Part shown: piece by piece, positions 6,339 through 30,235 of the stretch
Layout of the letters: each line of letters starts with the position of its first letter
How positions within the stretch are numbered: position 1 is the first letter of the stretch
NCBI GenBank assembly: GCA_003278345.1
Contig: QCFH01000006.1
Coordinates: forward strand, 1-64,000
Length of the DNA: 64,000 bases
DNA from: Prochlorococcus sp. AG-363-C02
GTDB taxonomy: Bacteria; Cyanobacteriota; Cyanobacteriia; PCC-6307; Cyanobiaceae
Reading direction: 5' to 3'
Position numbers and translations under genes: made by a program
The notes under the pieces: model-generated
The model's input: the letters and a program-made list of their open reading frames with translations, nothing else
What the model was told of the DNA's origin: nothing
The model's database searches: none

Positions 6339-7870
6339 TGAGTTGAATTATGCAGTTTATTTTGCAATATTTCAGTTAAACTTTCACCGATTAAGGTGAT
6401 TGATATGAAGATAACTGTAATGAGTATAACTTCTTCCCATGCAAATGAACTTAGCGATTCTTGTAATTGCCATCCTAATCCGACACCGCCAACTACACCT
6501 ACTACAACTGTTTCTCTTAGAATGATATCTGCCCTGTAGATAGAATATGTTATATATCTATTTGATTGAGGTGTGAATTTGCCATAAAACCATGATAGTT
6601 GCTTCTTACTACCTGTTTTACTAATAGCGTTGGATATAAGGCTGGACTGTTTATTGATATTTTCTTTTAAAATTCTTCCTAAAACACCCATATTTTGAAT
6701 TCCTAATGCTAGTGCTGCTACAGATACACTTGGCTTAGTACAAAGAATCAATAGCAATGAAGTTAGTGGTGGGGGAAATAATCTACAAAAGACCCAAAAT
6801 ATAGATATAATTTTTTCAAAAATTTTAGATGGATATAACATTAATAAAATAGGAGGTAGTGCTGTTGCTATACATGATGCAAAAATGGTTATTGTTAATG
6901 TCTCTAGGATTAATTTTATCCATGGCAAATCATTAATAGATCTCATTATATTTTCTGGGCTTATTATGCTAGGAAAATAAATACTTGATGCGCTTAATAG
7001 ATCAAAACCTAGATAAAGTAGAGATATAAATGATAATAAGAATACTATTAGGAGTATTAATAAACTTATTATTGTATAAATTCCTACTCTGTTAATATAT
7101 AGATAAGGATTTTGTGCACATTCAAGACTTTTTTCAAGGCCATATATAGCAATGAATAATATCCACAAGCTTGTCCACATCTCTGAGAAATTTAGAGATA
7201 AAGTACTTAAATATAATTGGGTACCTATCCCACCAAGTCCAAATACACCAAGAAGTGTAGCTCCTCTTACGGCACATTCAAGTCTATAAAATCCATAAGT
7301 ACCTATTAATGGAATAATTTTAGGTAACATTGCAGTAATTATTACCTGAATTTTTGTAGCACCAGTTTGTTGAATGGATATAATCTTATCAAAATCTATT
7401 GCATCTATTTGCTCAGCAAATATTCTGGCCATTAGTGATGAATACGGTATAACCATGGCAATTATTGCGATCCAAGGATCTAGACCAAATATTTGAAGAA
7501 GAAGCAAACCCCATATAAGTTCATGTGTTGCTCGGGTTAGCATTAATAAACGTCTGATAATTGTTGCTATTAAGCTTGGAAAGCCTAGAATTTTAAAAAT
7601 AGAATATGAACTAAAAAGGGCTAAAATTATTCCCATTGCAATACTTATAGTCCAAGCGAATACTGCTATTGAAAAAGTAATCGCCAACCCATGGAGACTT
7701 TTTGCAATGATAAATTTGTCAAAAGAAGGATTGAAAGCTGATATCAAAAACTTAGTTAGTGTGTTAATTCCGCCAACATGAAATCCATTGAGAAACTCAA
7801 AAGATATTGGAATAATTACCAGTATGGGAATTAATGCAATAAAGGGAGCTGAAAAATATAGTTTTTTCAA
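6335..7870 (-). CDS. phnE: Phosphonate/phosphite ABC transporter permease (two PhnE domains fused)
   Basis: At 511 residues this is about twice a usual PhnE. It contains two copies of the permease domain: the first EAA-type loop is near residues 150-215 (AEQIDAIDFDKI to LLGVFGLGGIGTQL), and the second is near 400-480 (LGRILKENI to VVGVVGGVGLGWQL). Around a dozen membrane helices are visible. A single fused chain would replace the usual homodimer. It lies 4 bp after phnC and overlaps the SGNH gene. The inner-membrane channel role follows from the phnD-phnC-phnE order. Confidence 0.9.
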   Translation of the reverse strand: MKKLYFSAPFIALIPILVIIPISFEFLNGFHVGGINTLTKFLISAFNPSFDKFIIAKSLHGLAITFSIAVFAWTISIAMGIILALFSSYSIFKILGFPSLIATIIRRLLMLTRATHELIWGLLLLQIFGLDPWIAIIAMVIPYSSLMARIFAEQIDAIDFDKIISIQQTGATKIQVIITAMLPKIIPLIGTYGFYRLECAVRGATLLGVFGLGGIGTQLYLSTLSLNFSEMWTSLWILFIAIYGLEKSLECAQNPYLYINRVGIYTIISLLILLIVFLLSFISLLYLGFDLLSASSIYFPSIISPENIMRSINDLPWIKLILETLTITIFASCIATALPPILLMLYPSKIFEKIISIFWVFCRLFPPPLTSLLLILCTKPSVSVAALALGIQNMGVLGRILKENINKQSSLISNAISKTGSKKQLSWFYGKFTPQSNRYITYSIYRADIILRETVVVGVVGGVGLGWQLQESLSSFAWEEVILITVIFISITLIGESLTEILQNKLHNSTQ

Positions 7871-7874
7871 TGTA

Positions 7875-8612
7875 CTATTTATATAGAGCCTTGATGACTT
7901 GATTACTTATTTCATGAGACTCTAGGTCAAAGAAAATCTTGCCTTCTTTTATTCCTATAATTCTTGAAAAATATTTTATAAATTGAGGCTGATGAAGAGT
8001 CATGACACATGTTGATGGAATAATAAAAGAATTACATTCAACTTCATTTAGCAATATTTTTAGAATATTTAGTGATTGATGTGGATCTAATGCAGTAAAA
8101 GGTTCATCGGCAAGGAATATTTTTGATTTCTGTCGTAGAAGTCTTGCTATAGCAACTCTGGTTCTTTGGCCCGAAGACAATTCCTTTACATTTTTATGAA
8201 TAACGTTTTTATTTAGTTGTGCAGCATGCAAACAATCAATGCATGCATTTTCTTCAATAGCAGCTATTAAATTTGCTAGAGACCAAAAAAAATTTTTTTG
8301 ACCCAATATACCGATGTTGATATTTTGATTAACGGAGAGTTCCTCTACTAATCTTAAATCCTGCCATAGAGTTGCAATGTGTGATTTTTGCTTACGACTT
8401 ATTTGATTTATATCAGTACCATTATATTTCACAAGACCTTTCGTTGGTTTTAATGTCCCATTAGCAACTTTCAAGAGACTTGTTTTACCAGAACCACTTT
8501 TACCAAGAATAGCTATCTTTTCACCACTTTTAATAGACAGATTTATTCCCTTTAACCTGTGATTATCTTTATTTTGAAGACTGATATCAAATAATTCTAG
8601 ATGAACGTTCAT
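7875..8612 (-). CDS. phnC: Phosphonate/phosphite ABC transporter ATPase
   Basis: A 245-residue ABC ATPase with Walker A GKSGSGKTS (about 37-45), signature LSSGQRTR (about 145-152), Walker B KIFLADEPFTALD (about 164-176) and switch histidine in VMTLHQPQ. It powers import through PhnE. Its ATG overlaps the phnD stop (8609-8612), and phnE follows 4 bp later, so the three genes form one operon. No C-P lyase or phosphonatase gene lies in this window. Confidence 0.9.
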   Translation of the reverse strand: MNVHLELFDISLQNKDNHRLKGINLSIKSGEKIAILGKSGSGKTSLLKVANGTLKPTKGLVKYNGTDINQISRKQKSHIATLWQDLRLVEELSVNQNINIGILGQKNFFWSLANLIAAIEENACIDCLHAAQLNKNVIHKNVKELSSGQRTRVAIARLLRQKSKIFLADEPFTALDPHQSLNILKILLNEVECNSFIIPSTCVMTLHQPQFIKYFSRIIGIKEGKIFFDLESHEISNQVIKALYK

Positions 8613-9536: not shown

Positions 9537-10715
9537 TTACATCCTCATAACAAGTCTTTCTAATCGATTAAGACCTTCTGATATTGTTTCTTCAGAAGTA
9601 GAACAGGATATTCGAACACATCTATCATTTCCAAAAGCTATTCCAGGTATAATAGCCAATCCTTCTTTTTCTAAAGCCTCTTTACAGAATTCTAAAGAGC
9701 TGGGCATGCCTTTGTGCAAACATGGAAATGCATAGAAAGCCCCTTCTTGAGAAATAACATTTAGACCTTTTATTCTTTTAATTCCATCGGTTAAAAGTTT
9801 TCTTCTATAGTTATAACTTGTTATCATATTCTTTATTCCTCTTGGTGCTTTATTTATTGCTTCAAGTGCACCTTTTTGGGCAAAACTACAGACATTACTG
9901 GTACTTTGACTTTGTAAAGCAATTGCTTTCTTTATAATATTACTATTACCCTGCAAATAACCTATTCGCCAACCAGTCATCGCCCATGCCTTGGCAAAAC
10001 CGTTTACGATAAAAATTCGTTCTTTTAAGTCTGGTGCTATAGCGGAAAGACTATAATGTGTTTCATCGTTAGAGATTAGGAATTCATAGATTTCATCACT
10101 CATTACTAATAGTCTCTTGTGTTTTCTCATTATTTCAGCTATTGATTCCAGTTCGTTACGGCTCATCAACCTTCCAGTTGGATTGCAGGGTGAGTTCAAT
10201 ATTAATAATTTAGTTTTTTCAGTAATATTTTCTTCTATCTTTGAAATTTGAATCTTAAATCCTTCCTCCGGATTGGTTTCTATGCATATAGGTAAGGCCT
10301 TCGCGAATTTTGTCATTTCGGGATAACTTAACCAATATGGTGAAAGAATTATTACTTCATCTCCAGGATCAAGAACTACTTGAAATAGGTTGAAAATTGC
10401 TTGTTTCCCTCCATTTGTTATTAAAATATTTTCTGCTTTAGAGGCAATATTATTAACTTCTTTGAGTTTAATTGCTATGGCTTCTCTTAATTCAGGATCA
10501 CCTCCAGCTGGACCATATTTTGTTATTCCTTGCCTGAGAGCTTTTATTGCTGCTTCGGTTATAAATTTAGGCGTTTCGAAATCAGGTTCTCCAGCGCTAA
10601 GACTGCAAATATCTCTACCCTGAGTTTTTAATGATTGAGCTAATGCACTGATCTCTAGAGTCAATGATGGTTTCAAACCAAGAGCTCTATTGGAAATAAT
10701 TTCGTATTTGTTCAT
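9537..10715 (-). CDS. aspC: Class I/II pyridoxal-phosphate aminotransferase (aspartate aminotransferase type)
   Basis: A 392-residue cytosolic aminotransferase of the AspC-I gamma type. Evidence: SAGEPDFETP near residue 40, ITKYGPAGGDPELREAIA, the substrate/PLP block LILNSPCNPTGRLMS, DEIYEFL, and the PLP lysine in NGFAKAWAMTGWRIGYL. It would interconvert aspartate and oxaloacetate with glutamate/2-oxoglutarate. The PLP fold is certain; aspartate specificity is assigned by similarity. It lies 34 bp upstream of phnD on the same strand and may share its transcript. Confidence 0.88.
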   Translation of the reverse strand: MNKYEIISNRALGLKPSLTLEISALAQSLKTQGRDICSLSAGEPDFETPKFITEAAIKALRQGITKYGPAGGDPELREAIAIKLKEVNNIASKAENILITNGGKQAIFNLFQVVLDPGDEVIILSPYWLSYPEMTKFAKALPICIETNPEEGFKIQISKIEENITEKTKLLILNSPCNPTGRLMSRNELESIAEIMRKHKRLLVMSDEIYEFLISNDETHYSLSAIAPDLKERIFIVNGFAKAWAMTGWRIGYLQGNSNIIKKAIALQSQSTSNVCSFAQKGALEAINKAPRGIKNMITSYNYRRKLLTDGIKRIKGLNVISQEGAFYAFPCLHKGMPSSLEFCKEALEKEGLAIIPGIAFGNDRCVRISCSTSEETISEGLNRLERLVMRM

Positions 10716-21291: not shown

Positions 21292-21307
21292 TTTAAGATA
21301 TCTTTAA

Positions 21308-21490
21308 TTTGAACTACTTTGTTGGTGATGATCCTTTAAGTGCTCTGATCTGACTCTATTTCGACTTGAGGAGACTGTTGTGAAGGTGAAGTAAACCAGT
21401 CTTGTAACTGGAAATGGAACATCACTTTGACTCCTCTTCTGGCTTTTCCAGGTCGAATGCTTAGGTCACACGGCAAAGTGGTTCAACACA
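21308..21490 (+). ncRNA. ssaA: 6S RNA (ssaA / Yfr7)
   Basis: The 249 bp between purK and dld can fold as one long 6S-like rod. The closing stem pairs AACTACTTTG (21312-21321) with CAAAGTGGTT (21474-21483), with nine Watson-Crick pairs and one G-U. Inside it, GTGA pairs with TCAC and CCTTTAAG roughly with CTTAGG. A central bubble is followed by an arm with GAGGAG/CTCCTC and a small CCAGT/ACTGG hairpin. Cyanobacterial ssaA lies next to purK, so position and fold agree. 6S RNA binds RNA polymerase and mimics an open promoter. The ends are approximate. Confidence 0.82.
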
Positions 21491-21540
21491 TAAATTTAAC
21501 TAAATATGTATATAAGCAATTTCTAGTATCTAGTTTGAAT

Positions 21541-23241
21541 TTATTTATAATATTTATTTTTACTTAATTTACCTATACCGGCATTAAAACAATTATTTGG
21601 ATCCAGTTCTTTATAGAAAGCAGTTAAATTCTGATCCGCTTTATAAAAATGTCCAACATTATGTTCTGCAGGGTATTTTGCTCCAATAGAATCTAGTTTT
21701 GTTAGTATCTTATTTTTTAAAAATTCAAGATCGGAGTCTTTTTTTAAAAGAAAATCCCAATGAAATACCATGCACATAAAATGCGCCATTTGAAATGTCT
21801 CGTATGAGTTAAGGAATAACTCTTCTGGTATAATTTCATACCAATTATCACAATTACGAGGTAGTGCTATATCTAGTGGAAGTAAATCAGCTGTTATATG
21901 AGAATTCATTATTTTGGAACGTTTAGGAGCAATTCCTGAAACATATCTATGGAGAAGAAGGTCTTCTCCTTCCTTATCATTACATTCAAAATATGCTATT
22001 TCATAATTATTATTTACGAGCTTTTTTAAATATGATTTTGTTTCTATAATAGAGGAATCAGAACATACAGCTATTAAGTAGTGGTTATATTTATTTCTAT
22101 ATTCTCTTATTTTTCTTGGCAAGTGGTTTGGTAATAGATTACTTAAATTCTGAAGACTTTTATCAAAAATATCATTATCTAGAAATGGAATGAATGAAAT
22201 ATATAAATCTATTAATCTTTTTATTCTAAAAAAAAGTGGCATAACTTGTTTGCCTAGATATTTAATAATTAAAAATATATCTTTTCCATATTTACTTGCA
22301 CCATCAAATGACGAATAATGCATATATTCAAGCATATCGGGTAAGGAATTAAAACCTGTAAGCATATCTTTTCTGATTTTAGAGAATGCAGATGGTTGAT
22401 TAGTTCCAATAAAAAATACTTTCTTTTTATTAGTCTTTGGAAAAGTATCTATACGTACTGCAAAAACAACAATTTTTCCAGCACATCCACTTGCCTCATA
22501 AAGACGATCTTTGTCTGCATTATATCTTGCAGGTGTTTTACAATTTAAATCTTTAATAGTTTCTATATAACTGTTATCTGATCCTTTCCTCTCAGATTTA
22601 GGTACATTTAAATTATTAAAGTTTGACTTTTCTAGATTATCTAATATTTCTTCCGGTGTATTTCCTAAATCAATTCCCAAATGATTGATAAGTTCGAATT
22701 TTCCATGTTCATTTAACTTACCAAATAAAGAAAGCTCTGTATAAGCAGGGCCTCTTTTTAATAAATTTCCACCTGAATTATTACATATACCACCAACTAT
22801 AGATGCTCCTATGCATGAAGAACCTATAATTGAATGAGGTTCTCTATTCAATGGCTTAAGTTCTTCTTCTAATTTATAAAGAGTGGCTCCAGGTAAAGCT
22901 ATAACTTGATCTCCTTTATTAATTAAAATCAGTTTGTCTAATTTAAGTGTATTAATAATAATGATATCTCTATCATATTCATCTCCATCTGGTGTTGACC
23001 CTCCTGTAAGACCTGTATTGGCTGCTTGAATAATTAATATTGAATCTGACTCTAAACATAATTTTACTGATTTCCATAATTGGATTAAGTTTCTTGGAAT
23101 AACTACAGCTTTTGCGGCTCCATAACCAACTCTTATTCCTGTTCTATAGCTTTTAGTCTCTTTGTCACCAGTAAGAACATTATTTTTTCCTACTATAGAA
23201 ATTAATTCCTTTTCTAAGTTAGGTGCTTGCATTTTTTTCAT
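21541..23241 (-). CDS. dld: Quinone-dependent D-lactate dehydrogenase (Dld type, FAD)
   Basis: The 566-residue protein reads as a full-length relative of E. coli Dld. It has the FAD-binding PCMH domain (IQAANTGLTGGSTPDGDEYD, about 75-94; SIIGSSCIGASIVGGICNNS, about 137-156), then RGPAYTELSLFGKLNE, TPARYNADKDRLYEASGCAG and a C-terminal membrane-binding domain ending in AEHNVGHFYKA. It would oxidise D-lactate and pass electrons to the quinone pool. It is the last gene of a four-gene minus-strand operon, 32 bp after the small membrane peptide. This enzyme is more typical of proteobacteria, so gene transfer is likely. Confidence 0.92.
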   Translation of the reverse strand: MKKMQAPNLEKELISIVGKNNVLTGDKETKSYRTGIRVGYGAAKAVVIPRNLIQLWKSVKLCLESDSILIIQAANTGLTGGSTPDGDEYDRDIIIINTLKLDKLILINKGDQVIALPGATLYKLEEELKPLNREPHSIIGSSCIGASIVGGICNNSGGNLLKRGPAYTELSLFGKLNEHGKFELINHLGIDLGNTPEEILDNLEKSNFNNLNVPKSERKGSDNSYIETIKDLNCKTPARYNADKDRLYEASGCAGKIVVFAVRIDTFPKTNKKKVFFIGTNQPSAFSKIRKDMLTGFNSLPDMLEYMHYSSFDGASKYGKDIFLIIKYLGKQVMPLFFRIKRLIDLYISFIPFLDNDIFDKSLQNLSNLLPNHLPRKIREYRNKYNHYLIAVCSDSSIIETKSYLKKLVNNNYEIAYFECNDKEGEDLLLHRYVSGIAPKRSKIMNSHITADLLPLDIALPRNCDNWYEIIPEELFLNSYETFQMAHFMCMVFHWDFLLKKDSDLEFLKNKILTKLDSIGAKYPAEHNVGHFYKADQNLTAFYKELDPNNCFNAGIGKLSKNKYYK

Positions 23242-23273
23242 TGTTATTTGGCAGATAATATAAATCTTTAATT

Positions 23274-23435
23274 TTAGATAGCAATATAGGTAAAGGGTAC
23301 TATCACCTGAACTAAACTAAATATTAGTACTATTAACACTACTAATATAATAGATGTTATTATTGCTGCTTGAATTGGAGTAGCATCCCTCCATATGGAA
23401 CTGAATATTGATTTTAAGAATTTAAGAAATACCAT
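23274..23435 (-). CDS. DUF5989-like small membrane protein (53 residues)
   Basis: A 53-residue open frame fills the gap between the carbamoyltransferase and dld, 9 bp after the first and 32 bp before the second. It has a polar N-terminus (MVFLKFLKSIFSSIWRDATP), one membrane helix rich in Ile/Val/Leu (about 24-44) and an ending VIVPFTYIAI. Size, topology and the (A/V)PF-x-Y tail resemble DUF5989, a peptide family that accompanies NodU-type carbamoyltransferases and SGNH hydrolases in other bacteria. The match is from memory of the pattern. Function unknown. Confidence 0.65.
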   Translation of the reverse strand: MVFLKFLKSIFSSIWRDATPIQAAIITSIILVVLIVLIFSLVQVIVPFTYIAI

Positions 23436-23444
23436 CTAATTAAT

Positions 23445-25172
23445 TTATCGTTTTTTTATCATACCAATATCGGTAAGTAAATATTTTAATGGTGTTATCG
23501 AGCAGACCATTAGGCCATCAATAAGGTCAAAGCAAGTAGGATCTCCACTAATATTTAATGATGAGTTTGCAATAATATCTATACCCTCAATAATTAATTT
23601 ATCTAAAAGTTCCCAAAGAATTGTTTCTTCTTCTACAATTTGGATCCTTGCAGTTCCATCAACATGTGTTGTAGGAAAAGATAAAGATATAGAATCTTTT
23701 TTACACTTACATGTTGCAGTCATTGTCTTATATGAAGACATAACAGCCGGATTTAACTCAAAGTACTTATAAGCGGTTTCTTTCTTCATAGCTGGAGCAG
23801 TAGGCCTAAATGGACTTCTATCTTTTATTAAGTTATTTAGTTTTTTAACTGATTTACTATTTGCTCCGTTGCATATAAGTGATCTATTGCCTAGTGCTCT
23901 TGGACCTGTTTCACTATTAGAAATAATTGTTCCTATTACTTCTCCTTCTTTTATAAGCCTGCATGCTAATTCTATAGAATCTATATGATTATCTGTGACA
24001 AGAATATAATTCTTATCTAATAGCTTACTAATCGCTTCATATTGGTCATAACAGCTATAATTTGAGGGATAAAGTGATGGCTTCTCTATACATTTAACAT
24101 TTTTAGATTTAAGATACCCATATAAAGAAGCACCAATAGCTGCACCAGAGTCACCAGGACTTGGTGGTACGATAAGCTTATTTACAAAGTCAAGTTCAGA
24201 TATGTAATTTACTGATGCTGAATTCAGTGCTACACCTCCCGAAAAAAGAAAATTCTCTGATCTTGTTATTGAATGAGCATAATTAAATATTTTAGATAAT
24301 ACATTGTTAGTTGAATCTTGAGCTCCTCTTGCAATATTGGCATATTTTTGAAAAGTTAGATCTCCTGGTAGTAATTTTGCAAATGGATTTCTAGGTTCGC
24401 CAAGCATTGAAATTAATTTACTTCCATATGAATCTGTGATGCTTTTATAAAAACTAAAGAACTCTAGGTCTAGAATAATCTTATTATTAAAAGAATCCCA
24501 TTTCATAAGTTTATTAACTAGTTTTGCTTCTTTACTATTTGAATCTCCATAGGCAGATAAACCCATTACTTTATATTCACCTTCATTAATAGTAAACCCT
24601 AGAAAATCGGTAATACTTGAATAATATAAACCTATTGAGTTTGGATAACTAGATGACCATAACTCTTTAATATTATATTTATCTCTAACATAACTAATGG
24701 AAGTAGTACTTCTATCTCCAAAACCATCTACAACAATAGAACATACATCATTTTGATAATCCGAATAAAAAAGTGTTGTGAGGGTATGAGATAAATGGTG
24801 ATCAATATAAATTAGCTTTTTTTCAAGACCAGGCTTCTCCTTTGCTATATCCAAATAACAAGATAAAGAAGACTTCTTGAAATTCCTAATTTGGTTTACT
24901 ATCAATTGCATGCTTTCTGGAATAAATTTAGATGCTTCTTTTAAAGGAAAAAGAAAAGCACTTAAAGGTTTCTCATAAAATATTACTTTTTCAATAGCAT
25001 CAGTATTTAAATTATGGATGTTGAAAATTCTTTTTAAAGCTCTTTTTGGAAAAGATTTATCTCCTTTGATTCTACTTAATGACTCCTCTCTATAGTAATC
25101 AATTAAATTACCATTATTGTCTACTAAAGCAATAGCTGATTCATGATTGTACGCAGAAATGCCAATAAACAT
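23445..25172 (-). CDS. NodU/CmcH-family carbamoyltransferase
   Basis: The 575-residue protein has the family's two domains. The N-terminal Kae1-like domain has FIGISAYNHESAIALVD, the metal-binding DHHLSHT (His125, His126, His129) and VVDGFGDRSTTSI. The C-terminal YrdC-like domain has NSETGPRALGNRSLICNG and FRPTAPAMKKE. Such enzymes transfer carbamoyl phosphate to a hydroxyl of a sugar or natural product. The acceptor is unknown. It is 3 bp after the diiron gene and 9 bp before the 53-residue peptide, so the genes are co-translated. Confidence 0.92.
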   Translation of the reverse strand: MFIGISAYNHESAIALVDNNGNLIDYYREESLSRIKGDKSFPKRALKRIFNIHNLNTDAIEKVIFYEKPLSAFLFPLKEASKFIPESMQLIVNQIRNFKKSSLSCYLDIAKEKPGLEKKLIYIDHHLSHTLTTLFYSDYQNDVCSIVVDGFGDRSTTSISYVRDKYNIKELWSSSYPNSIGLYYSSITDFLGFTINEGEYKVMGLSAYGDSNSKEAKLVNKLMKWDSFNNKIILDLEFFSFYKSITDSYGSKLISMLGEPRNPFAKLLPGDLTFQKYANIARGAQDSTNNVLSKIFNYAHSITRSENFLFSGGVALNSASVNYISELDFVNKLIVPPSPGDSGAAIGASLYGYLKSKNVKCIEKPSLYPSNYSCYDQYEAISKLLDKNYILVTDNHIDSIELACRLIKEGEVIGTIISNSETGPRALGNRSLICNGANSKSVKKLNNLIKDRSPFRPTAPAMKKETAYKYFELNPAVMSSYKTMTATCKCKKDSISLSFPTTHVDGTARIQIVEEETILWELLDKLIIEGIDIIANSSLNISGDPTCFDLIDGLMVCSITPLKYLLTDIGMIKKR

Positions 25173-25175
25173 TTT

Positions 25176-25883
25176 TTATAGAATTGATTTATAATTTATA
25201 TCCATTAAGTTCTTATTGCTCCGTTTAAATTCCTTTAAATTTAAACTTTTTAGCAACCTTGAGATGATTAACGCAAATAATGAATAGAGAGGATAAAATA
25301 TGTGCTCTAGTAGAGCAATGTTACTATGATAAAATTTCCTACCTTTGTTCTTTATGCTTTCTCTTAATTTGTAAAGTGAAAGTTGCCATGGTTGTAAAAA
25401 TGGAAAATACCTTAGAAAATATTCTTTAGCTTTTCCATGATGTCTCAATTCATCTTCCATTATTTTCATCACACTTCTACCTTCTTCTGTGTTAGCCCCT
25501 AATAGCTTTACAATTTTTGAAAAAGATGATTCAGCTAATAATTCGTTTGTATAAACATACGCAATAAAATTCTTTAAACTCATATTTTCGACTAGATAAC
25601 CATTCTGTGATACATATCCCTTCCTTATGAGCCCTTGTGGTGTAATCCTAAACCTTCTTAGTTCAGAAGTATTTATACCAGATGTTTTATTTGATAAGAT
25701 CTTACGAAATGTTTTAGTATGATTATATTCATCCTTAGAATGTTCAAAGTAACCAAATGCGAGGGAACTGCTTTTAGCTTGCTTACAAGCAGCTAGCATC
25801 TCAAGAGCAGAGCCATGTTCAGCATATATAGTTTCATATAGGATTCCAAGTATTTTTGTATTATCCATTTTACTTATACTCAA
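25176..25883 (-). CDS. Ferritin-like diiron protein
   Basis: The 235-residue protein has the four-helix diiron pattern: Glu22 (YAEHG), an ExxH at Glu52-His55 (DEYNH), Glu114 or Glu118 (NELLAES), and a second ExxH at Glu145-His148 (DELRH). The C-terminal third (about 185-215) is hydrophobic and may attach to a membrane. This could be an oxygenase, hydroxylase or iron-storage-like protein; no subfamily is clear. It is the first gene of the islet operon. A second start, six codons in (MDNTK), is possible. Confidence 0.75.
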   Translation of the reverse strand: MSISKMDNTKILGILYETIYAEHGSALEMLAACKQAKSSSLAFGYFEHSKDEYNHTKTFRKILSNKTSGINTSELRRFRITPQGLIRKGYVSQNGYLVENMSLKNFIAYVYTNELLAESSFSKIVKLLGANTEEGRSVMKIMEDELRHHGKAKEYFLRYFPFLQPWQLSLYKLRESIKNKGRKFYHSNIALLEHIFYPLYSLFALIISRLLKSLNLKEFKRSNKNLMDINYKSIL

Positions 25884-25963
25884 AAAAATTTTAGCATAGA
25901 ATTATTATAAGTAGATATCCTTGCTTATTTGCTAAATAATTCTTGTTATAATTAGTTTGTTAT

Positions 25964-27310
25964 ATGTTATATAAATACGAGATGGCAAACAAACTAGATA
26001 TTAAGAAAACATTGCTCTATACAATATTTATTACTCCTTTGATTATTCTTCTACTCGAATTGTCGCTACAAATATTATATAGATACCGTTTTGATAATAA
26101 TGAATATTCATTTTTGATAGATAGTGATAATCGCATTTCAAAAACTAAATTTGATCCAATTACAGGATGGAGTCATAATTGTGACTTTTCCATGAATCAA
26201 CAAAATTTTCCAAATCAGGTTATTTGTAACAGGCATGGATTAGTTAAAACACCATTTTCTGTGAAGGATTCAAATGAAGATGTGAAGGGAGTTTTGCTTT
26301 TAGGTAATAGTGTTGCAATGGGAGAGGGACTTTATAGCCGAGGAAATCGAAATTCATTTGCTAGCCAAGTTGAATTACACCTTAGAGAATTAAATTCTAA
26401 TATTGACTTAGTAAACGGAGCATATTCTGGTTTTAATACTTGGCAGGAGCATTTAGAAGCTGTTAGATACTTTAATTCAGAGCCTCTGTTTGATGATCTT
26501 CCTAGACTAGAAATGATAGTAAGTTTTGGAGGGATACAGGACTTTTGGAACTTTTTAAGATTACTAGTAAATAATGAGCTAAATACTGTCAATGATTATA
26601 AAATTGCAAATGGTTTGATGATCAATATAAATACTATAGATTATATAAATACAGTAACAAGTAGTTATAGTGGTAATATATATAATGGCTTTAAAGCGCT
26701 TTTAGCTTCTATAAGTTTAAATAGTAGGTTATATGCGTTAACTACAAATCTGTTAAATAATTTTTTTACTCAACAGTTGTCTAGCATAGATAAAAATCAA
26801 GCTATAATAGGTATTACACCTAGGATTTCCTATCAGAATTTGGACGCTATAATAATAAATAGATTTGGATTAACTAAAAAGGAATATCTATTTATTAGAG
26901 ATTATTTCATTTCATCTGTTACAAGGAATATTAAAGCTAATAGTGTTTTACTTGAAAAAGGAAATTATGTTTATACCTATGCGCCAACTTACTTTAGTAC
27001 ACTAGATAATAATTCTTCATTAAGCAAGGAATCTAACTTAGTTAAAGGAATAGGTCATTTAATAGGGAATAAAGAATACCAATTTGATATTTATGAAAAT
27101 GAGTTAAATATTATAGAGAAGGACTATAGAACAGCTTTGATAGAAAAGCTTAAATCATCTAAAGAAATTCAGGTTCTAGATTATTCGCAATTGGCAAGAG
27201 ATGTAGATTGGTTCATAGATTATAGTCATTTAAATGAATATGCTGCTTCAAGTTTAGGAAAGCGCCTTGCTAATGATTTAATTATTCTTCTAGATAGAAA
27301 AAGTAACTAG
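25964..27310 (+). CDS. Membrane-anchored SGNH-hydrolase-like protein
   Basis: A 448-residue protein with an N-terminal membrane anchor (about 16-38). An extracytoplasmic SGNH domain follows, with block I LLLGNSVAMGEG (Gly114-Asn115-Ser116, so GNS in place of GDS), a FGG block near residue 189 and the C-terminal Asp/His in DYSHLNEYA. ATG 25982 (MANKL) is an alternative start. It is divergent from the carbamoyltransferase operon with an 80 bp shared promoter gap. SGNH proteins beside carbamoyltransferases may load or remove acyl or carbamoyl groups on glycans, which is inference. Confidence 0.75.
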   Translation: MLYKYEMANKLDIKKTLLYTIFITPLIILLLELSLQILYRYRFDNNEYSFLIDSDNRISKTKFDPITGWSHNCDFSMNQQNFPNQVICNRHGLVKTPFSVKDSNEDVKGVLLLGNSVAMGEGLYSRGNRNSFASQVELHLRELNSNIDLVNGAYSGFNTWQEHLEAVRYFNSEPLFDDLPRLEMIVSFGGIQDFWNFLRLLVNNELNTVNDYKIANGLMININTIDYINTVTSSYSGNIYNGFKALLASISLNSRLYALTTNLLNNFFTQQLSSIDKNQAIIGITPRISYQNLDAIIINRFGLTKKEYLFIRDYFISSVTRNIKANSVLLEKGNYVYTYAPTYFSTLDNNSSLSKESNLVKGIGHLIGNKEYQFDIYENELNIIEKDYRTALIEKLKSSKEIQVLDYSQLARDVDWFIDYSHLNEYAASSLGKRLANDLIILLDRKSN

Positions 27311-27393
27311 TTTCTACTATTGTAATAATTGATACTTAACCACCTAGATTGACTAGCTGCAAGATATAATTCATAAGAATTTAATTTTTTCAC

Positions 27394-27648
<255 letters not shown>

Positions 27649-27668
27649 ATATTAAGCTGTTAAACAAT

Positions 27669-27703
27669 AAAAAACCATTGCTCAATCTGAGCAATGGTTT
27701 TTT
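27669..27703. terminator. Bidirectional intrinsic terminator
   Basis: An 11 bp perfect stem, ACCATTGCTCA (27674-27684) with TGAGCAATGGT (27688-27698), closes a three-base loop and is flanked by A and T runs. It can end the poly-glycine peptide transcript on the plus strand and the TPR gene on the minus strand. Confidence 0.92.
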
Positions 27704-28532
27704 ATTTGCAGACTAAGTCCTTTTCTTTTTTAAGAAATCTATAGCCCATTCTTTTAGAACTTTTTAGGTCTTTACAGGCTTTTTTAAAATCCCCCAATTT
27801 ATAATATATAGCCGCACGGTTGTAGTAACTTACTGGGTTGTCTTTTTCTAATGATATAGATTTATTGATGTCTATTAATGCTGCCTTTGTATTTCCTTTT
27901 GTATAATATGCTAGTGATCTAAAGCTAAAAGATTGAGCATGTTTAGCATTTATTGCAATCGAACTATTTAAATCATTTAAGGCACCTTTAAAATCCTTAA
28001 GTTTTAATTTTATTTTAGCTCTATCAAAATATAATAAGTAGTCCGATGGATTAATAGATATAGATTTATCATAGTTATATTTAGCTTTATTATATTCTCC
28101 TATTTTTAAATATGATTCTGATTGAATAAAATATACTAATTCGTTCCCACCTTCTTTTTCTATAAAATAGTTGAAGTCTTTTATAGCTCCTCTATAATCT
28201 CCTAATTCATCTTTAACTATACCTCTATAAAAATAATAATCAGGATTAGAATTGTTTAAGTTTATAGCTTCATCTAAATCAATTAAGGCTTTCTTTCTTT
28301 CTCCAATATAAGACTTCAACTTCCCTCTTTTATAATAAAGAGTATCCGCTTGATTACTTATAGCTATTTGATCATCTAACTCTGATATTAAGGAACTTGC
28401 ATTAGTTATAGAACTTATTTTATTTGTATTATTTTTACTGAAATTGCTACAGGATGATGTTGAAATTAATATTATAATTCCTATTATATTTTGAAAGGCT
28501 AACTTTATTTTAGAGCTAATTTTATTACTCAT
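27702..28532 (-). CDS. TPR-repeat lipoprotein
   Basis: The 276-residue protein has a lipoprotein signal with lipobox-like LISTSSC (Cys28) and about six tetratricopeptide repeats from residue 55 to the end, for example ALIDLDEAINLNNSNPDYYF and AIKDFNYFIEKEGG. It is probably anchored in a membrane facing the periplasm and acts as a protein-interaction scaffold. Its start overlaps the stop of the upstream DoxX gene by 4 bp (28529-28532), so the two are translated together. Confidence 0.85.
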   Translation of the reverse strand: MSNKISSKIKLAFQNIIGIIILISTSSCSNFSKNNTNKISSITNASSLISELDDQIAISNQADTLYYKRGKLKSYIGERKKALIDLDEAINLNNSNPDYYFYRGIVKDELGDYRGAIKDFNYFIEKEGGNELVYFIQSESYLKIGEYNKAKYNYDKSISINPSDYLLYFDRAKIKLKLKDFKGALNDLNSSIAINAKHAQSFSFRSLAYYTKGNTKAALIDINKSISLEKDNPVSYYNRAAIYYKLGDFKKACKDLKSSKRMGYRFLKKEKDLVCK

Positions 28533-28888
28533 TTTCTATTAAGAATCAATAAAAGTCCACCACATAAACCTAAATTTAATAGTAAGGCTCTACTTTGAAA
28601 AGGATATAAATGAAATATAATTGTTGTAGGAATTATAAATAATAGCAATAATATTGCACCGACTTTCTGTTGTTTGCCTACAATAATAAGAAAGGATCCT
28701 GCTATAAGGATAATTATAGCTAACACTAATAAGATCATTGAGAATTGTTCTGGAATACCTCTGTTAGATATAAACTGAACTACATTAGAGAAATTTGTAA
28801 TTTTATTAGGTATAGCATTTATAAAAACTGCGGAGAGGCATATTCGTGCAATAAAGTCTATTATTTGTGGGTGTTTTAATGTTTTCAT
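28529..28888 (-). CDS. DoxX-family membrane protein (copy 1)
   Basis: A 119-residue protein with four membrane helices and the DoxX pattern: RICLSAVFINAIPNKITNF, then a RGIPEQFSMIL segment and LFIIPTTIIFHLYPF. DoxX proteins are small quinone- or redox-linked membrane proteins of varied role. It is paralogous to the DoxX gene at 29786, sharing the IPTT-IFH block and the order of helices. It is coupled to the TPR lipoprotein gene. Confidence 0.82.
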   Translation of the reverse strand: MKTLKHPQIIDFIARICLSAVFINAIPNKITNFSNVVQFISNRGIPEQFSMILLVLAIIILIAGSFLIIVGKQQKVGAILLLLFIIPTTIIFHLYPFQSRALLLNLGLCGGLLLILNRK

Positions 28889-29115
28889 CTTCTCATTGTT
28901 ATACTTATAAAATTATAGTACTATTTGATTAGCTATAATGATTAAATTGAAAATTTCTTCTTATATATGTACTAAACTTAAAATTATATCTTTTATTTCT
29001 AAATACCTTTATAAATAATACGCAAATTGCATTTTTAATTCATTTGAATAGACACTAGGAAACTTATCTAATGAAAATAATTATCTTTTATCATAATTTC
29101 ATTCCAGCAGGGCAA
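28889..29115. other. AT-rich intergenic stretch, no gene seen
   Basis: The left part of the 449 bp gap between the DoxX and Trp-rich genes. The only open frame (a 26-codon ATG frame at 28938 on the plus strand) has no supporting signal. The right part of the gap contains the candidate small RNA described separately. Confidence 0.5.
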
Positions 29116-29116
29116 G

Positions 29117-29299
29117 TTGACAGCCTTACTGGACCAGAATTGTACTTATGTACCATCCTGTATTAAGTGACGCTACATATGGTGCTAATCTTTAGATTGA
29201 AATCGCTACTGGTGGGACTTGATTTATTGAATTATTTGACCTAGAAAGAAGATTCCCCATCACCCAGGCTCCGCGTTTTAGCAGAGTCTTTTTTTTTGA
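29117..29299 (+). ncRNA. Candidate small RNA with own terminator
   Basis: A plus-strand intrinsic terminator at 29266-29297 has no plus-strand gene to serve: the nearest one upstream ends at 27648 and has its own terminator. Just before it lies another possible stem, CTGGTGGGA (29209-29217) against TCCCC and CACCCAG (29254-29267). A consensus -35 box TTGACA sits at 29117-29122, although the -10 region after it is weak. No convincing open frame occurs. The 5' end is uncertain, and it resembles no small RNA I can name. Confidence 0.5.
29266..29297 (+). terminator. Intrinsic terminator of the candidate small RNA
   Basis: The stem AGGCTCCGC (29266-29274) pairs with GCAGAGTCT (29281-29289) with one mismatch and one G-U pair, a six-base loop and a run of nine T (29289-29297). 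The T run is on the plus strand only, so it is directional. Confidence 0.85.
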
Positions 29300-29337
29300 A
29301 CAGATACGTTCATATTTTTTGCATTTGCTAACTAAAC

Positions 29338-29547
29338 CTATTCTGTTAGCTGAACCCATCCGATAGTCCACTTCGCATAGGTTTTTAATTCACTCCAATT
29401 AAGCTTGAATTGGATATTGTCGTCTAGCACTGCTTTTAGAACTACCCAGCGATCCTCTCCTTTTCCGCCATACTCTATAACCTCAAAATGTCGATGTCCT
29501 TCTCTAGGAGCACTTGATGTCCAGGCTTTGTTAGGGGGCCATCTCAT
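29338..29547 (-). CDS. TIGR02450-type small Trp-rich protein
   Basis: A 69-residue basic protein with six tryptophans (KAWTSSAP, RWVVLKAVLD, LNWSELKTYAKWTIGWVQL). The opening WPPNKAWTS and the spacing of tryptophans match the small conserved TIGR02450 family of cyanobacteria and some proteobacteria. The function is unknown. It stands alone, with 238 bp of plain AT-rich sequence before the next gene. Confidence 0.78.
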   Translation of the reverse strand: MRWPPNKAWTSSAPREGHRHFEVIEYGGKGEDRWVVLKAVLDDNIQFKLNWSELKTYAKWTIGWVQLTE

Positions 29548-29767
29548 TTATTCTTTCCTATTGAGAAAATTATAGTGAGTTGAGTTCATTTTAGTTTTCC
29601 TTATAACTGATTTTATACGATTAACTTCGAATATCATATCTTTTATACTAAATACGATCATAGTTTGAAACCTGCTTACGCTTATTATGTCTATTCCTTG
29701 GCATAAATACTTAATTGGTTTAGTAATTATGGACCTTAAAATTTAGTAAAGTAATATTTTATCTATT

Positions 29768-29780
29768 TCCGGAGTCCGGA
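29768..29780 (+). promoter_or_regulatory. Double TCCGGA palindrome before a DoxX gene
   Basis: Two copies of the self-complementary hexamer TCCGGA are separated by one base and end 5 bp before the ATG at 29786. The block includes GGAG, which may serve as ribosome binding site. In this AT-rich spacer it could be an operator or a small 5'-leader hairpin; no regulator is known. Confidence 0.4.
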
Positions 29781-29785
29781 TTATT

Positions 29786-30235
29786 ATGAGTAAGAATTTA
29801 GCGTCATTTGAATTTATAGGAAGAATTCTTTTTACAACAACATTTTTAGTAGCAATACCACCTAAGATATTTAAGTTCGAGAAAGTAGTAGATGCAATTG
29901 TTTATCAAGGTGTACCTCAATCTATAGCTCCATTTCTTTTAGTGTCTGCAATCATATGCATTTTAATAGGCAGTTTATTTTTTTTAATCGGTAAAGCTCG
30001 TTATGGCAGCCTTTTACTTTTATTATTTTTAATTCCAACAACCCTTATTTTTCATATCTTTCCTTTAGATTCACAAGCATTTTTTATGAATTTAGGTTTA
30101 ATCGGAGCGCTGATTATTTTCTTTAATAACTTAGATAACAATAAAAGTATTTATAATAATAATATTCTTTATAAATTAATAAGCCAAGCTATAAAATTCA
30201 TAAGCTTAGAGGTTTCCAAATTAATTAAAAAATAA
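29786..30235 (+). CDS. DoxX-family membrane protein (copy 2)
   Basis: The 149-residue protein has four membrane helices, with FIGRILFTTTFLVAIPPKIF, an FLLVSAIICILIGSLFFLIG helix and LFLIPTTLIFHIFPLDSQAF. It is clearly related to the DoxX gene at 28529, which has the same IPTT-IFH and LNLGL blocks, and carries an extra amphipathic tail (about 118-149). The two copies lie 0.9 kb apart in opposite orientation, so they arose by duplication or independent gain. Confidence 0.82.
   Translation: MSKNLASFEFIGRILFTTTFLVAIPPKIFKFEKVVDAIVYQGVPQSIAPFLLVSAIICILIGSLFFLIGKARYGSLLLLLFLIPTTLIFHIFPLDSQAFFMNLGLIGALIIFFNNLDNNKSIYNNNILYKLISQAIKFISLEVSKLIKK

What the first reader, a model, noticed from the sequence alone, without database searches (positions are those of the whole stretch)
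21541..27310. Carbamoyltransferase-DUF5989-SGNH cassette with a diiron protein and D-lactate dehydrogenase
Sequence shows a tight minus-strand operon: ferritin-like diiron gene, 3 bp, NodU-type carbamoyltransferase, 9 bp, 53-residue DUF5989-like peptide, 32 bp, dld; and a divergent membrane-anchored SGNH protein. Known elsewhere: carbamoyltransferase, DUF5989 and SGNH hydrolase genes often travel together near sugar or natural-product genes. The addition of a diiron protein and a lactate oxidase is not something I know. Inference: a surface-glycan or small-molecule modification system (hydroxylation, then carbamoylation, with an extracytoplasmic SGNH enzyme), possibly gained by transfer.
Basis: partly seen in the sequence, partly recalled or inferred. 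Interest (0 to 1): 0.75.

Follow-up and report, generated by a model that had tools for sequence, protein, structure and literature searches.

The report
Prochlorococcus diiron–carbamoyltransferase envelope module
A small block of genes that some strains of the ocean cyanobacterium Prochlorococcus carry at many different chromosomal places always joins a carbamoyl-group-adding enzyme to an iron-dependent, oxygenase-like protein and a tiny membrane peptide; it looks like an undescribed way to decorate a cell-surface or secreted molecule, but what it decorates is unknown.

Summary
Ferritin-like diiron protein, NodU/TobZ-type carbamoyltransferase (CTase) and a 53-aa membrane peptide are consecutive in 28 of 28 named Prochlorococcus loci and in 15 of 15 genome-search loci. 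A membrane-anchored SGNH-like protein is beside them in nearly all, in three arrangements. Comparison with empty sites shows an inserted islet at two unrelated chromosomal sites (purK side in the window's genus, ychF in a high-light-type genus). The peptide is not a PF19451 (DUF5989) member but looks like a distant counterpart; the genome's true DUF5989 lies elsewhere, in a CTase–SxtJ–DUF5989 cassette. The nearest described block is sxtI–sxtJ–sxtK–sxtL of saxitoxin clusters; here SxtJ is absent and a diiron protein leads the operon. Best mechanism, inferred: diiron oxidation and O-carbamoylation at the inner membrane of an envelope or secreted molecule, with periplasmic SGNH processing. Substrate unknown. 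No diiron relative in phages, viral contigs or other cyanobacteria tested; no paper found.

The parts
25176..25868 (-). ferritin-like diiron protein, 230 aa (upstream TTG at 25883 also possible)
   Evidence: Orthologs in 15/400 Cyanobiaceae genomes and 28 named Prochlorococcus loci. E17, E47xxH50, E109, E140xxH143 invariant in 27 sequences. AF2 model pLDDT 82, four-helix core plus C-terminal helices; ferritin-superfamily fold.
23445..25172 (-). NodU/TobZ-type carbamoyltransferase, 575 aa
   Evidence: PF02543 5e-33 and PF16861 8e-33; PDB profile match NovN 5e-57, GdmN 1e-50, TobZ 2e-29; D124HHxxH129, D149, D341 invariant in 15.
23274..23435 (-). 53-aa single-helix membrane peptide, DUF5989/SxtK-like in size, position and C-terminal PFxY motif; not a PF19451 member
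25982..27310 (+). membrane-anchored SGNH-like hydrolase/acyltransferase, 442 aa (upstream ATG at 25964 also possible)
   Evidence: GNS (S110) and DxxH (D413, H416) conserved; AF2 + Foldseek: CgnD 1.1e-4, EstL5 1.3e-4; homologs in 13/400 genomes, all of which carry the diiron gene.
27394..27648 (+). small secreted Cys-polyGly peptide, 84 aa (TTG start)
   Evidence: Beside the module in 18 of 28 loci; hydrophobic N terminus, L[IL][AS]CGGGG core; unlinked copies in two genomes.
27702..28532 (-). TPR protein with hydrophobic N terminus
   Evidence: Beside the module in 19 of 28 loci and absent from empty sites; Pfam TPR. TPR proteins of this kind are common elsewhere in the family.
21300..29190 (.). 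approximate extent of the inserted islet between purK and the conserved 29192-30235 genes
   Evidence: Genomes of the same genus without the module run from purK directly to homologs of genes at window 29192-30235 (L158-L161).
21541..23241 (-). dld, D-lactate dehydrogenase; neighbour inside the islet, not a module component
   Evidence: Adjacent only in the window and AG-436-C13; elsewhere in 2 and undetected in 11 of 15 module-bearing genomes.
28529..28888 (-). DoxX-family gene inside the islet, similar to the one at 29786-30235; probably a passenger
27672..27700 (-). strong hairpin between the converging peptide and TPR genes, terminator-like
   Evidence: 13-pair stem, reported on the - strand; consensus match only.

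Best explanation
A self-contained accessory islet of Prochlorococcus for tailoring an envelope-bound or secreted molecule. Shown by comparison: diiron–CTase–53-aa peptide is an invariant gene trio, travels with an SGNH-like protein and often with a secreted Cys-polyGly peptide and a TPR protein, and was inserted as a block at different chromosomal sites. Inferred: the diiron protein is an oxygenase/oxidase that creates or exposes the acceptor group (most simply C-H to C-OH); the CTase transfers carbamoyl from carbamoyl phosphate via carbamoyl-AMP to that hydroxyl; the 53-aa peptide docks the CTase at the inner membrane, taking the place of the SxtJ/SxtK pair of standard cassettes; the membrane-anchored SGNH protein acts on the periplasmic side, moving, trimming or removing the substituent. 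The substrate is most likely a glycan or glycolipid.
For: Trio consecutive in 28/28 and 15/15 loci; 53-aa peptide and SGNH profiles hit 17 and 13 of 400 genomes, 15 and 13 of them diiron carriers. SGNH gene in three arrangements around the trio. Diiron and CTase distances correlate, r = 0.95, permutation p 0.0005 (partly shared ancestry). Empty sites at two unrelated loci. Diiron ligand set invariant, ferritin-like fold, weak Rubrerythrin/COQ7/AurF matches. CTase family and active-site motifs. Some copies lie among glycan genes: GDP-mannose/fucose-type enzymes in L039, polysaccharide exporter and sulfotransferase in L057, glycosyltransferases in L037. In the published saxitoxin model, hydroxylation is followed by carbamoylation by SxtI with SxtJ and SxtK (PMC2679770).
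Against: No biochemical data. The window copy and the ychF copies are not beside glycan genes. The ferritin-like fold also fits storage or peroxidase proteins. The SGNH proteins have GGIQD where block III normally has Asn, and two loci lack a close SGNH homolog. The secreted peptide and TPR gene are missing beside about a third of copies. The link of the 53-aa peptide to DUF5989 is weak (hhalign probability 42%).
Confidence: 0.45

Rival explanations
1. The module modifies the secreted Cys-polyGly peptide (RiPP-like or protein modification): the diiron protein oxidises and the CTase carbamoylates residues of the 84-aa peptide, the SGNH protein cleaves it and the TPR protein handles it.
For: The peptide gene is beside the SGNH gene in 18 of 28 loci and comes with the islet. 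The top fold match of the SGNH model is CgnD, the hydrolase that releases the core of crocagin, a RiPP whose cluster also has a carbamoyltransferase, CgnI. A NodU-like CTase modifies lysine in another RiPP (preprint PMC13174530).
Against: 10 of 28 loci have no such gene beside the module; related peptides occur unlinked in G178 and G229, the latter without the module. The peptide has a signal-like N terminus, whereas diiron protein and CTase have no obvious export signal. The CgnD match is a general SGNH fold match at 12% identity from a pLDDT-70 model.
Confidence: 0.12
2. The ferritin-like protein is not an oxygenase but a rubrerythrin/Dps-like iron or peroxide handler that metallates or protects the iron-dependent CTase; the rest is an ordinary O-carbamoylation cassette.
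For: Best structural neighbours are bacterioferritins and Dps; the weak Pfam signal most members share is Rubrerythrin; NodU/TobZ-type CTases bind a metal (established for TobZ, recalled).
Against: Standard CTase cassettes in the same genomes have no such protein. The protein has about 70 extra conserved C-terminal residues beyond the ferritin core.
Confidence: 0.2
3. The islet alters the cell surface chiefly as a phage- or grazer-escape trait; the chemistry is as in the main explanation but selection comes from predators.
For: Patchy distribution, several insertion sites, some copies in glycan islands.
Against: No match in PADLOC; no phage challenge data; patchiness fits many accessory traits.
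Confidence: 0.15
4. All five of the reader's genes, with D-lactate dehydrogenase, form one pathway.
For: 32 bp gap and same strand in the window; same order in AG-436-C13.
Against: dld is elsewhere in two carriers and undetected in 11 of 15, several of which are at least 99% complete.
Confidence: 0.03

Closest known systems
sxtI-sxtJ-sxtK-sxtL block of saxitoxin clusters (PMC2679770) and the CTase-SxtJ-DUF5989 cassettes of marine picocyanobacteria (e.g. G000 C2, L110)
   Same: NodU-family CTase followed by a ~53-54 aa small protein, with an SGNH/GDSL-type gene nearby; in the published model an oxygenase acts before the CTase.
   Different: No SxtJ; diiron protein in front of the CTase; CTase only 28-30% identical to the standard cassette enzymes but 56-71% within the family; 53-aa peptide outside PF19451; SGNH proteins not alignable over their length with the putative ones of standard cassettes. 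SxtK and SxtL themselves were not compared.
Crocagin cluster (CgnC oxygenase, CgnD hydrolase, CgnI carbamoyltransferase)
   Same: Combines oxidation, a serine hydrolase of similar fold and a carbamoyltransferase.
   Different: CgnC was predicted a dioxygenase and assayed with 2-oxoglutarate, not a diiron protein; soluble RiPP pathway; no 53-aa membrane peptide.
PNP-1 cluster of Pantoea (pnp1B SGNH, pnp1D NodU/CmcH CTase)
   Same: SGNH hydrolase and NodU-family CTase genes close together in a natural-product cluster.
   Different: No ferritin-like gene mentioned; antimicrobial product; other enzymes.
Diiron enzymes AurF, COQ7, ADO, rubrerythrin
   Same: E / ExxH / E / ExxH ligand pattern in a four-helix bundle; ADO aligns over 163 residues, Z 13.2.
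   Different: No significant sequence membership; conserved C-terminal helices of its own.

Membership tests
NodU/TobZ O-carbamoyltransferase | Kae1-like N domain plus YrdC-like C domain (PF02543 + PF16861) | tested here: met
   115.3 and 113.9 bits, cut-offs 24 and 27
NodU/TobZ O-carbamoyltransferase | HxxxH and Asp metal/nucleotide site residues | tested here: met
   D124HHxxH129, D149, D341 invariant in 15 sequences; aligned with NovN
NodU/TobZ O-carbamoyltransferase | carbamoyl transfer to a hydroxyl | not testable with these tools
   needs assay
DUF5989 (PF19451) | score over Pfam cut-off | tested here: not met
   no hit for any of 14 members at E 1; the own-genome PF19451 hit is on another contig
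DUF5989 (PF19451) | ~53 aa, one membrane helix, C-terminal (A/V)PFxY motif, gene just after the CTase | tested here: met
   hhalign p 2.7e-4 but probability only 42%
sxtI-J-K carbamoylation cassette | SxtJ (PF19588) gene between CTase and the small peptide | tested here: not met
   CTase and peptide abut or nearly so in all 28 loci, no room for SxtJ; present in the standard cassette L110
SGNH/GDSL hydrolase | block I Ser and block V DxxH | tested here: met
   S110, D413, H416 invariant in 16 sequences
SGNH/GDSL hydrolase | block III Asn and Pfam cut-off | tested here: inconclusive
   GGIQD in place of GxND; PF13472 only weak in 7 of 16; fold match E 1e-4
ferritin-like diiron proteins | four-helix bundle with E / ExxH / E / ExxH | tested here: met
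ferritin-like diiron proteins | member of a named subfamily (rubrerythrin, COQ7, AurF, ferritin) | tested here: inconclusive
   window protein has no hit; some relatives match Rubrerythrin, COQ7 or AurF at 0.002-0.009
ferritin-like diiron proteins | iron bound; oxygenase activity | not testable with these tools
   needs assay
RiPP gene cluster | precursor peptide strictly linked to modifying enzymes | tested here: inconclusive
   peptide gene linked in 18 of 28 loci, unlinked copies elsewhere
D-lactate dehydrogenase (PRK11183) | NCBIfam equivalog cut-off | tested here: met
   798 bits against 391
known anti-phage defence system | PADLOC model match | tested here: not met
   no hit for six proteins

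The most novel reading that the evidence does not exclude
A new class of diiron enzyme that works only with a dedicated carbamoyltransferase on a membrane-held substrate, giving an oxidised and carbamoylated envelope or secreted molecule not yet described in Prochlorococcus, carried by a mobile islet that sets closely related strains apart at the surface.
Probability: 0.3. Interest if true: 0.75.

Novelty: new variant of a known kind. Interest (0 to 1): 0.55.

Why it matters
Prochlorococcus is among the most abundant photosynthetic organisms, and much of the difference between its strains lies in accessory islets of unknown function. This one has a sharp border, an invariant core, clean empty-site controls and a carrier with a strain name (MIT 9302), so its chemistry can be sought by comparing strains. 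It also suggests that the carbamoylation block known from a toxin pathway is one version of a wider membrane-linked tailoring machine whose small subunits have never been explained, and it adds a conserved family to the ferritin-like superfamily that reaches no curated family cut-off.

Tried and rejected
dld as a component: rejected. DUF5989 membership: not met. Phage origin: phages carry NodU-like CTases but only at about 24-29% identity among the hits listed, and no diiron relative was found in phage records or viral contigs. Defence system: no PADLOC hit. Wider spread: an HMM of the diiron protein over 194 genomes of the phylum hit only two family members plus one weak partial hit, G460, E 0.005; the genome-contig scan returned Prochlorococcus only, but it starts from short peptide patterns. 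TPR as a specific partner: such proteins are common, 51 of 141 genomes, so only its linkage counts. VIA-align Z about 14 supports the ferritin superfamily but cannot choose an activity. The SGNH profile had no match in PDB sequences and did not align over its length with two putative SGNH proteins beside standard cassettes. Literature: no paper holds the term DUF5989; none combines diiron, carbamoyltransferase and ferritin-like.
Full report
OBSERVATION. The minus-strand order is ferritin-like protein, 3 bp, CTase, 9 bp, 53-aa frame, 32 bp, dld; the SGNH-like gene is divergent. The dld product is a clear D-lactate dehydrogenase (PRK11183, 798 bits against 391) and the CTase has both NodU-family domains. 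The window's diiron and SGNH proteins have no curated family hit, and the 53-aa peptide is not a PF19451 member, nor is any of 14 relatives. The only PF19451 hit in the genome is on another contig (C2), right after a CTase and an SxtJ protein.

WHAT IS CONSERVED. The diiron protein occurs in 15 of 400 Cyanobiaceae genomes. A scan of the 84,980-species collection returned 28 loci, all titled Prochlorococcus, among them strain MIT 9302. Diiron, CTase and 53-aa peptide are consecutive in all 28 and in all 15 genome-search loci. Searched on its own, the peptide hits 17 of 400 genomes: the 15, plus G014, where it follows a CTase cut by the contig start, and G017, where an orphan copy lies near a standard cassette. 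The SGNH-like protein hits 13 of 400, all diiron carriers. Its gene is divergent upstream, co-directional upstream, or co-directional downstream of the trio in different strains, so the association is kept through rearrangement. L039 and L046 lack a close homolog; L027, the genome search counterpart of L046, has another, weakly GDSL-like gene there. Eighteen of 28 loci add the Cys-polyGly peptide and 19 the TPR protein.

EMPTY SITES. In four genomes of the window's genus without the module, purK is followed within a few hundred bases to about 1.5 kb by homologs of genes that lie at window 29192-30235, so roughly 7.5 kb is inserted here (L158-L161). In a high-light-type genus the module sits between a short conserved gene and ychF; four genomes without it (L163-L166) keep the neighbours, and three of them have a 52-aa frame there that the carriers checked lack. 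Among the 15 genome-search loci, two neighbourhoods are shared by several genomes and five genomes share neither. dld is in the islet only in the window and AG-436-C13, elsewhere in G039 and G190, and undetected in the other 11.

THE PROTEINS. Diiron: E17, E47xxH50, E109 and E140xxH143 are invariant in 27 sequences. The AlphaFold2 model (pLDDT 82) has a four-helix core plus C-terminal helices. Foldseek gives ferritin-superfamily chains at E 5e-3 and above, VIA-align Z about 14 for bacterioferritin and Dps and 13.2 for ADO. Some relatives match Rubrerythrin, COQ7 or AurF weakly. CTase: closest solved relatives NovN, GdmN, TobZ; 30% identical to the standard CTase of the same genome against 56-71% within the family. 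53-aa peptide: one strongly hydrophobic helix, near-invariant C-terminal VPFTYIAI, purifying selection; it aligns nearly end to end with true DUF5989 at 24% identity, p 2.7e-4, probability 42%. SGNH: N-terminal membrane helix, S110 and D413xxH416, pLDDT 70, best fold matches CgnD and EstL5.

MECHANISM. In the saxitoxin cluster the genes sxtI (CTase), sxtJ, sxtK (165 bp) and sxtL (assigned to decarbamoylation) are listed together, and SxtI with SxtJ and SxtK is proposed to carbamoylate a hydroxyl after oxygenase steps (PMC2679770). By position and length, DUF5989 is probably the SxtK family; I infer this and did not compare sequences. The module keeps CTase, small peptide and SGNH-like protein, lacks SxtJ, and puts a diiron protein first. 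The simplest reading is oxidation plus carbamoylation at the membrane, with SGNH processing outside. Some copies lie among sugar-nucleotide, glycosyltransferase, sulfotransferase and polysaccharide-export genes, which favours a glycan or glycolipid; the window and ychF copies give no such hint. The oxygenase role, the docking role and the substrate are inferences.

LIMITS. Many genomes are single-cell assemblies, so absences next to contig ends are weak. The genome-contig search starts from short peptide patterns and reaches close relatives. The 28 and 15 loci overlap in part, being drawn from overlapping genome collections, so they are not independent counts. The correlation of diiron and CTase distances (r 0.95) partly reflects common descent. 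Papers under subscription were not searchable.

Noticed in passing
window 27524-27558, inside the peptide gene 27394-27648: A perfect GCG triplet run (11.7 copies) encodes 11 glycines in a 31% G+C region; glycine run length varies among relatives, so the tract may change length rapidly.
   Followed up: partly
G000 contig C2, L110:7575-10013: The same genome carries a second, standard carbamoyltransferase-SxtJ-DUF5989 cassette amid what look like sugar and polysaccharide genes.
   Followed up: partly
L108 about 10025-10180 (G017 C5:140024-140179): Orphan copy of the 53-aa peptide without its own CTase, between a gene weakly like the metallo-beta-lactamase fold and a standard CTase cassette.
   Followed up: partly
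L037:6507-7634: Next to the diiron gene and divergent from it lies a fatty-acid-hydroxylase family gene (PF04116), another diiron-type enzyme, near glycosyltransferases.
   Followed up: no
window 28529-28888 and 29786-30235: Two DoxX-family genes about 0.9 kb apart; only the second has a counterpart in genomes without the islet.
   Followed up: partly
L139:5591-6586 and 7034-7954 (G263): Two tandem 306-331 aa proteins with a signal-like start and a Cys-Gly-Gly segment resemble the small secreted peptide family.
   Followed up: no
phage records, e.g. KU686205.1, GU071098.1: 141 phage records, mostly cyanophages, encode NodU-like carbamoyltransferases, all under 60% identical to the window protein.
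   Followed up: no
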